Assembly (NCBI RefSeq): GCF_009763805.1
Contig: NZ_CP046804.1
Coordinates: forward strand, 2,418,001 to 2,482,000
DNA length: 64,000 bases
Direction: 5' to 3'
Origin: Vibrio cidicii
Lineage (GTDB): Bacteria; Pseudomonadota; Gammaproteobacteria; Enterobacterales; Vibrionaceae
Shown: positions 5,106 through 64,000 of the stretch, one piece after another
How positions within the stretch are numbered: the stretch's first letter is position 1
Layout: the number at the start of each line of letters is the position of its first letter
Notes under the pieces: generated by a model
Seen by the model: only the letters and a program-made list of their open reading frames with translations
Told to the model about the DNA's origin: nothing
Databases searched by the model: none
Program-made: the position numbers and the translations under genes

Positions 5106-6281
5106 CAGCTAATGCCCATGCCAAGATCAAACACCTGCGCCAGTTCGTCACTGATGGCCGATTTCACCTCCGAATCCTGATCCCAAGCTTTCAGTTGCGT
5201 CATGTCGCCAAGCACCGCCGTATTAGCTGCGAGATATCGCGTAGAGCGCACCATCACCCAAGGACGTGCTAAACCAAGCGTCACCACTTGCAATAAGAAG
5301 TTACTGATCACTAACGTGGTGTAACTCCACACGCCCATGGTCGAAGAAAAAGTAAACGTTTGTTCACTGTCACTTGCTTGCTGCGCACGTAGACAAGAGA
5401 AGACATAGTTGCGAATACGAGTGGTCGTGTAGGCCGTCATGACGACCGACATAATTAAAATCAAAGCATACATCAATGGAACAACAAACAAACTCGAATG
5501 ATTCTCAAGAGTAGAGAGATCGCCATTCACTAAATCCATCAACACACCTGAGCCAAACACATACCCGAGCACAACCCCACCGATGATGGCGCTAAAGAAA
5601 CGCACCGAGTAGACTCGCTTTCAGGTAAACCGAAGCAAAGAAACCTGTTTTCAACTCGGCACTAAATTGCCATTCGCCATACTGATAACCATTAGCAAAA
5701 TAGTGATGCATACCCACCGCCATCCAAGCGTAAAGCACGGCGGCGACAACCAGCCCAAACAGACCGAGTAACATGGCGGCCATTCCTGACGAGAAAGCCG
5801 CAGCAAACACTAGGCTACCGTACAATCCAAGCACAACCAGCGAGACAATACCACGCCCCAAAATGGCAGTATAGGCGCCACTAAGTGAGGCATTAAAGGC
5901 AAAATGCACGTTGCGATAGCTAGTCATCGCCGCATCAAAGCGAGCATTGCTCCACATCAGCCAAGGCAAGGAGAGATAAAACGCGATCAAAAGCAGCGCA
6001 CTGAATAACGGGAAGATGGTGTTGGTCACCGCCCAGACAAGCACCACCAACAAGGCTACTAAACGGCCTTTAAGCAGTTGAGTCGGGGTGGCGTGATACT
6101 CAAAATTATCACCTGCGAGCTCAGTATTGCCGTAAAAGTAGCGTTTTGTTCTGACCTTTGCCCAAGCGGAGTAGATGCCTAAGGTGATAACAGACAAAAG
6201 AATATTGACAATCCAGATGCCAAAAAACTCGCCCCCTTGGCCGTGAAATTGGATGGCATTTCGCGTTGATGTGTTGTTCAT
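5105..6281 (-). CDS. yjgN: YjgN-family (DUF898) inner-membrane protein, apparent frameshift
   Basis: A polytopic membrane protein of the DUF898/YjgN family, function unknown. Two frames cover it. The first runs from the ATG at 6281 (MNNTSTRNAIQFHG, preceded by GGGAT) to a TAG at 5592. The second continues to 5105. Removing one base in GAAAC at 5597-5601 (plus strand) gives a continuous 391-residue protein in which the hydrophobic segment YLKASLLGAF runs directly into SAIIGG. DUF898 proteins are normally a single chain of about this length, so I treat the split as a single-base insertion. The longer upstream ATG at 6365 would add a non-conserved extension. The stop overlaps the start of the M48 peptidase gene. 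Confidence 0.8.
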
Positions 6282-6539
6282 TGAAACTATCCCTGACGTA
6301 ATAATTAATAAGAAAATCAGTAATTTTATAAAACCTGTTATTCTAACCGGATTACACTCCCCCATTCAGTGATGAATCTAAACAAAACACATTGATTTCT
6401 TATATAAATCACTCAGCAACCCATATATAGTTTTTGACGATTAATTAGATAGATTCAATCGAATATCTCTTTAATTTTTTTTCTCAGATACTGTACTCAA
6501 CGCCGAACCAACTACGATGGCTCACTGAGAGGATCGATC

Positions 6540-6950
6540 ATGAAAAAGACACTAACTTTTGCAGCACTTCATTTTACTATCGCTTTTAGTGTCGCTTACG
6601 TACTGACTGGCGATGTTCTAATAGGTAGTTTAATTGCCATGATTGAGCCCTCAGTGAACACCGTGGCATTTTACTTTCATGAGAAAGCATGGGCGCAAGC
6701 ACCCGCGTTAAGAGCGCGTCAGTGGATGACCAAACTCAAGACTGCCAGCTTTGCGACCGTCCATTTCAGCGTGGCGTTTTCTGTCGCCTATCTGTTGACT
6801 GGTGACCTTTTGGTCGGTGGCGTCATGGCGATGATTGAACCTTCGATCAACACAGTGGTGTACTACTTCCATGAAAAGGTCTGGTTACGCCACAGTGCAA
6901 GCAAACAAACGCGCGATTCGCACCGTTTTTGTTTGCACCCAACGGCGTAG
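6540..6950 (+). CDS. Membrane protein with two tandem DUF2061 repeats
   Basis: A 136-residue protein made of two copies of the same 50-residue unit. The first (about residues 1-53) reads LHFTIAFSVAYVLTGD and then MIEPSVNTVAFYFHEK. The second (about 62-115) reads VHFSVAFSVAYLLTGD and then MIEPSINTVVYYFHEK. DUF2061 proteins are small membrane proteins of unknown function. Each unit carries two hydrophobic helices and the conserved MIEPS-N-T motif. The tail after residue 117 is polar. A strong GAGAGG ribosome site lies 7-8 bases before the ATG. The upstream 175 bases are AT-rich and hold the promoter. Family certain, function not known. Confidence 0.8.
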   Translation: MKKTLTFAALHFTIAFSVAYVLTGDVLIGSLIAMIEPSVNTVAFYFHEKAWAQAPALRARQWMTKLKTASFATVHFSVAFSVAYLLTGDLLVGGVMAMIEPSINTVVYYFHEKVWLRHSASKQTRDSHRFCLHPTA

Positions 6951-6984
6951 CCACTCTATAGTTTTGACCATCATGAACTGAACT

Positions 6985-61235: not shown

Positions 61236-61248
61236 TACTCACCAATGT

Positions 61249-61281
61249 AAAAATGGGTTGCCTCGTGGCAACCCATTTTTT
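61249..61281. terminator. Bidirectional terminator between lysC and metH
   Basis: A 14-bp stem (61249-61262 with 61267-61280, loop TCGT) begins with five A and ends with five T. Confidence 0.9.
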
Positions 61282-61299
61282 CGCTCGCAAGTGTGCGGT

Positions 61300-64000
61300 T
61301 TAACCGTTGATATTCGGCCCCAACCATTTTTCCGCTTCAAGTAGATCCCAGCCTTTGCGCTGCGCGTAGTCTTCTACCTGATCTTGTTGGATCTGTGCGA
61401 TCGCAAAGTAGCGAGATTCTGGATGAGAGAAATACCAGCCCGACACGGATGCCCCCGGCCACATTGCATAACTGCTGGTCAGTGACATGCCGATCGTTTG
61501 CTCGACATTGAGAAGTTCCCATAATGCCCCTTTTTCCGTGTGCTCCGGACACGCGGGATAACCAGGTGCAGGGCGAATACCTTGGTATTTCTCGCGGATC
61601 AATTCTTCATTGGATAAGTTCTCATCCGGCGCATAGCCCCAAATTTCTTTGCGCACTCTCTCATGCAGATATTCGGCAAAGGCTTCTGCCAGACGATCCG
61701 CCACCGCCTGAATCATGATCGCGTTGTAATCATCGCCCTGCGCTTTGAACTCATCAGCCAGTTTCTCGCTCATTGATGCCGCCAGTGACCGCAAACGCAC
61801 CAATCCAATCCTTTTTGCCTGAAGCTTTCGGCGCAACGTAATCCGACAAACAGTAGTTGGGGCCTTTCGGCTTCTCGGTTTGCTGTCTTAAATTGTGCAA
61901 CACTTTGACCACTTGGCTACGCGATTCGTCGCTATACACCTCAATATCGTCACCAATGCTGGCGGCTGGGAAGAGCGCACACATGCCACTGGCTTTCATC
62001 AGCCCTTCTTGCTCAATTTTATCCAGCCAATCATTGGCATCTTTGAACAAGCGTTGCGCCTCTTCACCGACCTCCTCGTGGTCGAAAATGGTCGGGTATT
62101 TACCCACCAGCGACCACGTCATAAAGAATGGGGTCCAATCGATATACTGACGCAAAACCGCCACATCAAAATCGGCAAACACATGCACACCCGGCTTAGC
62201 TGGTGCTGGCGGCGTGTAGCTCTGCCAATCGATCGCCGCTTTGTTGGCGCGTGCTTCTGCCAAGGTGACGGGTTTACTTCTCGGTTTCTTACGATTGTGC
62301 TGATCGCGCACCAACTCATAATCGGCCTGCAAGCGTTCGACAAACGCCGGACGCAGTTCATCAGAAAGCAGCGAGGTACACACCCCAACCGCACGCGAAG
62401 CATTATTGACGTACACCACGGGATGAGAATAGTTCTGCTCAATTTTGACTGCGGTGTGCGCTTTGGAGGTGGTCGCACCGCCGATCAGCAGTGGCAAATC
62501 AAAGCCCTGACGCTCCATCTCTTTGGCCACATGCACCATTTCGTCCAAAGACGGAGTGATAAGGCCAGAAAGACCAATGATGTCAACCTGCTCTTCTTTG
62601 GCCACTTTAAGGATCTGTTCACACGGCACCATGACACCTAAGTCAATGATTTCGTAGTTGTTACATTGTAAAACGACGCCAACAATGTTCTTGCCGATAT
62701 CGTGCACGTCGCCTTTGACCGTGGCGAGCAAAATCTTACCGTTAGTTGAACCGGACTGCTTAGAGGCATTAATAAACGGCTCTAAGTGAGCCACCGCCTG
62801 CTTCATCACCCGCGCCGATTTTACCACCTGAGGGAGGAACATCTTGCCTTCCCCAAACAGGTCGCCGACCACGTTCATGCCGTCCATCAACGGCCCTTCA
62901 ATTACTTCCAGTGGCTTAGACGCGTTTAGCCTCGCCTCTTCGGTGTCTTCGACGATAAACTCAGTAATGCCCTTCACCAGCGCATGCTCAAGCCGTTTAG
63001 CCACAGGCCAAGTACGCCATTCCAGCGCTGAGGCATCTTCCACTTTGCCCACGGCATTTTCACGATACGCTTCGGCGATTTCCAACAAGCGTTCAGTGCC
63101 ATCTTCACGACGATTCAGCACTACATCTTCGACTGCTTCGCGCAGTTTCTCTGGTACGTTATCGTAAATTTCGAGCTGCCCGGCGTTGACGATACCCATG
63201 TCCATGCCGTTTTTAAAACAGTGGTAGAGGAATACCGCATGAATCGCTTCGCGCACATAGTTATTGCCGCGGAAAGAGAAAGAAACGTTCGACACCCCGC
63301 CTGAAATCATCGCATGCGGCAGATCGCGTTTGATGTCCGCCACCGCATTAATAAAGTCGACCGCGTAGTTATTGTGCTCTTCAATGCCAGTCGCGATGGC
63401 AAAAATGTTCGGGTCGAAGATCACATCTTCCGCTGGAAAGCCGACTTCATCGACCAGAATTCGATAAGCGTTGGTACAGATCTCCAGTTTGCGCTCGCGC
63501 GTGTCCGCTTGGCCCACTTCGTCAAACGCCATGACAATCACTGCCGCGCCATAACGGCGGATCAGTTTGGCCTGCTCAACAAACTTGGCCTTACCCTCTT
63601 TGAGGGAAATCGAGTTGACGATGCCTTTGCCTTGAATGCATTTCAGGCCCGCTTCAATCACTTCCCACTTCGAGGAGTCCACCATCACCGGCACTTTGGA
63701 AATTTCTGGCTCAGACGCACACAAGTTGAGAAAACGCACCATACACGCCTCGGCATCCAACATGCCTTCATCCATGTTGATGTCAATAATCTGCGCGCCG
63801 TTTTCTACCTGCTCGCGAGCCACATCCAAGGCTTCATCGTAAAGCTCTTCTTTAATCAAACGCTTAAAGCGCGCAGAGCCGGTTACGTTGGTGCGTTCAC
63901 CGACGTTAACAAACAAGGTATCTTTCGCTATCGTCAGAGGCTCTAGCCCAGAGAGACGACACGCCACCGGAATGTCAGGCAAGACACGCGGCGCGACCCC
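61300..64000 (-). CDS. metH: Cobalamin-dependent methionine synthase, 3' part, apparent frameshift
   Basis: The C-terminal two-thirds of MetH, which methylates homocysteine through methylcobalamin. The window shows the methyltetrahydrofolate domain (NVGERTNVTGSARF, then IIDINMDEGMLD), the cobalamin domain with the histidine motif DVHDIGKNIVG, and the AdoMet reactivation domain ending RPAPGYPACPEHTEK and MWPGASVSGWYFSHP. The frame breaks inside the AdoMet domain. Removing one base in GTTTC at 61761-61765 joins TGGINERE to LADEFKAQGDDYN. The gene continues past the end of the window, which enters at VLPDIPVACRLSG. No riboswitch is visible since the start is missing. Confidence 0.96.

What the first reader, a model, noticed from the sequence alone, without database searches (positions are those of the whole stretch)
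5597..61765. Twelve single-base insertions, all converting GTTC to GTTTC (or GAAC to GAAAC)
Twelve frame breaks in eleven genes were located by joining the two frames to the known protein family. Each is repaired by removing one T or A from GTTTC/GAAAC: yjgN 5597-5601, rapA 16933-16937, maf 29155-29159, mshQ 32347-32351 and 35258-35262, mshP 36054-36058, mshC 37526-37530, mshF 39516-39520, mshE 41115-41119, mshI 48467-48471, lysC 60000-60004, metH 61761-61765. In ten of twelve the next base on the GTTTC strand is T. Repaired lengths match the families (RapA 969, LysC 451, MshE 574). Random slippage would affect runs with any flanks and CC/GG as well; restriction to one tetranucleotide cannot be chance. 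No longer shared motif is visible. The sites lie on both strands. Many GTTC/GAAC sites stay unchanged, for example in valS and argF.
Basis: partly seen in the sequence, partly recalled or inferred. Interest (0 to 1): 0.88.

Follow-up and report, generated by a model that had tools for sequence, protein, structure and literature searches.

The report
Sulphur-marked DNA misread as extra bases
The broken genes in this Vibrio genome look like sequencing errors at GTTC/GAAC sites that the bacterium's own DNA-sulphur (Dnd) defence system probably marks, so the errors may show where that chemical tag sits.

Summary
All 12 five-letter sites are present and 10 of 12 are followed by T. Homologues show a frame break at each: 9 by two-frame hits, yjgN by Pfam pieces, maf and mshF by frame comparison, mshF weakly.

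An unbiased frame-break scan of 499 kb of the same assembly gave 31 extra-base zones; all 31 hold GTTTC/GAAAC (8.4% expected), 26 of them outside the window. Enolase, metK, fbaA and ruvX are among the broken genes, so the extra bases are not real in a living cell.

The likely cause is DNA phosphorothioation. The genome carries a Dnd cluster, GAAC/GTTC is a published partial Dnd target, and the flank bias matches the published one at two positions. A second dnd+ species, G010, shows the same scar (33 of 35); two relatives without DndD do not (0 of 4). In about 790 kb from 21 other dnd+ Vibrio, 1 of 7 extra-base breaks had the motif. So Dnd genes alone do not suffice. The second factor is inferred: native nanopore reading without short-read correction. 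No platform record was available.

The parts
5105..6365 (-). yjgN (DUF898), broken into two frames, motif at the join
   Evidence: Two Pfam DUF898 pieces, profile 3-190 and 190-335; motif
15904..18814 (-). rapA, broken into two frames; a relative (G012) has a 969-aa protein in one frame
   Evidence: Two-frame hit; Pfam pieces
28623..29195 (-). maf, N-terminus in another frame
31815..35782 (-). mshQ, two breaks
   Evidence: the break near 35258 rests on one relative only
35770..36232 (-). mshP, one break
   Evidence: Two-frame hits with three relatives
37432..37921 (-). mshC, one break
   Evidence: Two-frame hits with two relatives
39178..39640 (-). mshF, one break, weakest case
   Evidence: Frame comparison at about 30% identity
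40869..42747 (-). mshE, one break; relatives' one-frame proteins are 565-576 aa
   Evidence: Two-frame hits with three relatives
47241..48681 (-). mshI, one break
   Evidence: Two-frame hits with three relatives
59867..61235 (+). lysC, one break; relatives' one-frame proteins are 449-455 aa
   Evidence: Two-frame hits with three relatives
61300..64000 (-). metH, one break; gene runs off the window
   Evidence: Two-frame hits with two relatives; Pfam pieces

Best explanation
The frame breaks are consensus sequencing errors, not mutations. The bacterium, an unnamed Vibrio, has a Dnd system, which in its known relatives replaces an oxygen by sulphur in the DNA backbone after the G of a minority of GAAC/GTTC sites. 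Native, modified DNA was read; at the most heavily marked sites most reads carry one extra letter in the A or T run, from either strand, and nothing corrected it. Shown here: motif restriction, Dnd genes, a flank bias like that of known sulphur-marked sites, the same scar in a second dnd+ species, its absence in two relatives without DndD, and breaks in indispensable genes. Inferred: that these sites carry phosphorothioate, that the platform was nanopore, and that short-read correction was missing.
For: 31 of 31 own extra-base zones and 33 of 35 in dnd+ G010 hold the motif (8.4% and 7.7% expected); G008 0 of 3 and G012 0 of 1, both without a DndD match. DndB, C, D, E, DptG, DptH and associated genes in the own genome; DndB-E also in G010. 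DndC itself is split in the own assembly and DndD in G010; real loss of DndC would stop the marking. Named broken genes include eno, metK, fbaA, lepA, argG, ruvX. Flanks: A at +1 in 0 of 30 own and 2 of 32 G010 sites against 36%; T at +1 19 of 30 and 16 of 32; C at -2 17 of 30 and 16 of 32; PMC9521924 reports C at -2, A/C at -1, T/G at +1, G at +2 for marked sites and about 12% of sites marked (passages). PMC9069010 (parts 1-3 of 4): nanopore base errors mark GAAC/GTTC in Salmonella (3.9-4.4% of motifs) and fall in a dndC mutant. PMC6591954 (passages): an untrained modification motif (Dcm) made about 70% of nanopore consensus errors.
Against: No run record, raw reads or short reads were available, so platform and mark are inferred. 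None of the text read says that the error at phosphorothioate is an insertion. An in-vitro study saw no flank effect (PMC4515589, passages). At -1 and, in the own genome, at +2 the flank bias is only a trend, and at +1 T exceeds G, where the paper gives T or G. 20 other dnd+ loci and 20 other uvrA regions do not show the scar, which needs a second factor. No extra base at the motif was seen in the rRNA operons, where few sites exist.
Confidence: 0.88

Rival explanations
1. The same artefact, but from a base methylation at GAAC/GTTC (by the dnd-associated putative methylase or another enzyme) rather than from the sulphur mark.
For: A PT-associated putative methyltransferase lies in the cluster and in G010. 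PMC9069010 notes that GAAC/GTTC can carry methylation as well as PT.
Against: Only a small part of sites is affected (12 known breaks against 350 unchanged sites in the window) with a soft flank bias like that of PT; restriction methylases mark nearly all sites (PMC11662687, passages).
Confidence: 0.06
2. The same sulphur mark, but the extra base comes from polymerase stalling in PacBio sequencing rather than from a nanopore.
For: PT changes polymerase kinetics in SMRT sequencing (stated in PMC9069010); a stall beside the A/T run would lengthen it on both strands (inference).
Against: Consensus of many passes normally removes such insertions (recalled). No report of it was seen in the listings.
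Confidence: 0.1
3. Real insertions: sulphur-marked sites are mutation hotspots and the genes are truly broken.
For: Same motif and same Dnd link would be expected.
Against: eno, metK, fbaA and ruvX are broken together (essential in E. coli, recalled); DndC is broken; other dnd+ genomes are clean in the regions scanned.
Confidence: 0.02
4. Programmed ribosomal frameshifting at GTTTC/GAAAC.
For: One short motif at the breaks.
Against: The motif lies in all three codon phases (own 11/7/12, p 0.50; G010 13/5/14, p 0.10) and in both forms on the coding strand (12 GTTTC, 18 GAAAC in own).
Confidence: 0.01

Closest known systems
Dnd/Dpt DNA phosphorothioation of GpsAAC/GpsTTC (Salmonella Cerro 87, E. 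coli B7A)
   Same: dndBCDE and dptG, dptH families, same four-base target, partial use of sites, similar flank preference
   Different: Seen only through assembly errors; no chemical proof in this species; dptF and the cysteine desulphurase were not looked for
Detection of phosphorothioate by nanopore base errors (PMC9069010)
   Same: Errors at GAAC/GTTC in dnd+ native DNA
   Different: There read-level errors compared with amplified DNA; here one added base fixed in the consensus of an assembly
Dcm-motif consensus errors of nanopore assemblies (PMC6591954)
   Same: Systematic consensus errors at a modification motif that the basecaller was not trained on
   Different: A base methylation there; here probably a backbone mark at a minority of sites, and an added base

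Membership tests
Dnd DNA phosphorothioation system | dndB, dndC, dndD, dndE present | tested here: met
   NCBIfam over cut-off: DndB 466, DndD 497, DndE 94 bits; DndC in two pieces, the larger 343 bits over the 290 cut-off
Dnd DNA phosphorothioation system | Restriction partner dptF, dptG, dptH | tested here: inconclusive
   DptG and DptH over cut-off; dptF would lie outside the fetched stretch and was not looked for
Dnd DNA phosphorothioation system | Sulphur in the DNA backbone at the target | not testable with these tools
   Needs chemistry or raw reads
Modification-induced consensus errors of native long reads | Errors restricted to one modification motif | tested here: met
   31 of 31 own and 33 of 35 G010 extra-base zones
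Modification-induced consensus errors of native long reads | Extra bases absent from amplified or short-read data | not testable with these tools
   No reads were available
Programmed ribosomal frameshifting | Slippery site in a fixed codon phase | tested here: not met
   Phases 11/7/12 in own, p 0.50

The most novel reading that the evidence does not exclude
Published assemblies can carry a readable imprint of DNA phosphorothioation: in two Vibrio species the consensus itself records which GAAC/GTTC sites are most heavily sulphur-marked, giving both the target and the in-vivo flank preference (C at -2, T and not A at +1) without any chemistry. The same approach could read the unknown targets of other Dnd and Ssp systems from frame breaks in uncorrected assemblies.
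Probability: 0.75. Interest if true: 0.62.

Novelty: new variant of a known kind. Interest (0 to 1): 0.5.

Why it matters
Genes that look dead in such an assembly are most likely intact; pseudogene counts, core-gene trees and defence-gene annotation (DndC and DndD themselves look broken) are then wrong in the same systematic way. Conversely the errors are free data: they would give the target and context preference of a backbone mark that otherwise needs special chemistry, and allow a search for active phosphorothioation in any uncorrected long-read assembly. Why Dnd marks only a minority of its sites is an open question of that field, and this would make it testable from existing data.

Tried and rejected
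Raw excess of GTTTC in the window: none. rRNA operons as a test: no extra base at the motif seen among the length differences printed, lists cut at 12 per alignment, few sites. tRNA T-arms, which carry GTTC: 30 tRNAs found in 20 own stretches, not pursued. Class-wide search for split DndD: 10 of 369 genomes with a match, two pieces in G389 and two copies in G497, not followed. Plasmid search with a uvrA stretch: 4 records at about 74%. Real mutation, methylation, PacBio, programmed frameshifting and chance were weighed as above.

Limits. Query proteins came from about 360-400 kb of each of three relatives, so the five 20-kb samples of the small contig gave no zone. Only breaks with homology on both sides are found; counts are lower bounds. 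Zones rest on one to three queries each. Frame-scan p values assume independent zones. Literature searches for insertions at phosphorothioate sites in assemblies listed none, in open PubMed Central papers only and by listing, not by reading all.

Full report
1. The observation. The window (G000:C2:2418001-2482000 of a 4.75 Mb, two-contig genome) holds all twelve five-base sites named; T follows in 10 of 12. Nine sites are confirmed by relatives' one-frame proteins that hit two frames meeting there (the upstream mshQ site on one relative only); yjgN by two abutting Pfam pieces; maf and mshF by frame comparison, mshF weakly. The number of GTTTC in the window is not unusual, so the effect shows only through frames.

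2. Which organism. The species is unknown.

3. Is it general? I used 499 kb of the same assembly (window, 300 kb around it, five 20-kb samples of the small contig, 35 kb at the dnd locus) and 400, 400 and 362 kb from G008, G010 and G012. Relatives' ORFs were searched with tblastn and every change of frame between neighbouring pieces was recorded without reference to a motif. The own assembly gave 35 zones: 31 with an extra base (modulo 3) and 4 with a missing one, in 247 kb aligned. All 31 extra-base zones hold GTTTC or GAAAC, 1 of 4 missing-base zones does; random stretches of the same lengths hold it in 8.4%. Among all five-base words GAAAC/GTTTC was the commonest in the zones.

4. Relatives. 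G008 and G012, listed without a DndD match, gave 3 and 1 extra-base zones, none with the motif (0 of 4), and 5 and 3 missing-base zones, none with it; these rest on one or two queries and several look like alignment ends. G010, the best-scoring of the 40 relatives at uvrA (78%), gave 35 extra-base zones, 33 with the motif (7.7% expected), and 1 missing-base zone without it. G010 has DndB, C, D and E, DndD split in two.

5. The broken genes. I gave NCBIfam 19 of the 28 relatives' proteins that revealed own breaks outside the dnd locus; 16 of 19 had a family at E up to 1e-30: enolase, methionine adenosyltransferase, class II fructose-bisphosphate aldolase, elongation factor 4, argininosuccinate synthase, cystathionine gamma-synthase, aspartokinase/homoserine dehydrogenase (two breaks), methionine synthase, aceF, RuvX, HrpB, BarA, RpoS, PilQ, an ammonium transporter and nicotinamide-nucleotide amidase. 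Several are essential in E. coli (recalled). So the extra bases are very unlikely to be in the living cell's DNA.

6. The Dnd cluster. At C2:655001-675000 lie DptG, DptH, a family named phosphorothioated-DNA-binding restriction endonuclease, a DGQHR protein (below its own subfamily cut-off), DndE, DndD, DndC (split), DndB and a PT-associated putative methyltransferase (split). dptF and the cysteine desulphurase were not looked for. Against the V. cincinnatiensis locus (94%, 7.2 kb) an alignment with ordinary gap costs has three extra single bases in the own DNA and none missing, all three at the motif; with the looser costs it has seven extra (four near the motif) and three missing. The frame scan of the locus gave 3 breaks, 3 with the motif, each seen by 14 to 35 queries.

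7. Literature. GAAC/GTTC is the Dnd target in Salmonella Cerro 87 and E. coli B7A, with about 12% of sites marked (PMC9521924 and PMC4515589, passages). Nanopore base errors mark these motifs in Salmonella (3.9% and 4.4% of GTTC and GAAC) and fall to none detectable and 0.6% in a dndC mutant (PMC9069010, parts 1-3 of 4). That text does not say the error is an insertion. Motif-bound consensus errors of native reads are known for Dcm (PMC6591954, passages), and systematic indels from species-specific modifications are mentioned in PMC8011154 (passages).

8. The flank test. PMC9521924 reports, for marked sites, C at -2, A/C at -1, T/G at +1 and G at +2. Own assembly, 30 zones with a single site: +1 A 0 of 30 against 36% of unaffected GTTC (p 2.5e-6), T 19 of 30 against 24% (p 5.8e-6), -2 C 17 of 30 against 25% (p 4e-4); A/C at -1 (19 of 30) and G at +2 (11 of 30) are trends. 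G010, 32 zones: +1 A 2 of 32 (p 2.5e-4), T 16 of 32 (p 8e-4), -2 C 16 of 32 (p 0.037), +2 G 15 of 32 (p 0.027). These are 32 tests per genome, not corrected; the +1 results survive correction in both genomes, the -2 result in the own genome. An in-vitro study saw no flank effect.

9. Dnd genes alone do not make the scar. 29 of 196 Vibrio genomes searched have DndD at E up to 1e-60, own and G010 included. For 20 of the 27 others I scanned 20 kb (one 11.6 kb) at the dnd locus and for 20 of the 27 another 20 kb at uvrA, 21 genomes in all. Results: 6 and 1 extra-base breaks, 1 of these 7 with the motif and that on a single query; two of the others are strongly supported breaks without the motif. 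One search counted only breaks seen by two or more queries, all. In the same scans own and G010 gave 3 of 3 and 3 of 3, 2 of 2 and 7 of 7 (20 and 40 kb). Twenty-one named dnd loci gave no extra-base break and 4 missing-base ones without the motif; at least three of these loci are the same records as G204, G136 and G150. So Dnd seems needed but not enough. The likely second factor is native nanopore reading without short-read correction; differing Dnd activity or target in the clean genomes is not excluded, and their platforms are unknown.

10. Not translation. The motif lies in all three codon phases and in both forms on the coding strand, against ribosomal frameshifting.

11. What is new. Known: PT at GAAC/GTTC, its detection by nanopore errors, motif-bound consensus errors. 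Not listed: a one-base addition fixed in assemblies at PT motifs, or reading a Dnd target and flank preference from frame breaks. I rate it a new variant of a known kind.

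Noticed in passing
L004:6677-7555 (G000:C2:661677-662555): A gene of the family 'phosphorothioated DNA-binding restriction endonuclease' (NF045808, 377 bits) lies beside dptH in a dnd+ genome; an enzyme that cut sulphur-marked DNA would threaten its own host, so its real role there is odd.
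   Followed up: no
L004:17379-19796: A helicase-like protein beside the dnd cluster resembles the dnd restriction enzyme family TIGR04095 only far below its cut-off.
   Followed up: no
L048:256-1797, L049:8365-9923, L049:13826-15370: Three 16S rRNA genes of the own genome differ in length (1542, 1559, 1545 bases), with single-base and larger differences between rRNA copies.
   Followed up: partly
L034 (Vibrio variabilis CAIM 1454 dnd contig): Three missing-base frame breaks in the dnd region, none at the motif: a different error type or real decay.
   Followed up: no
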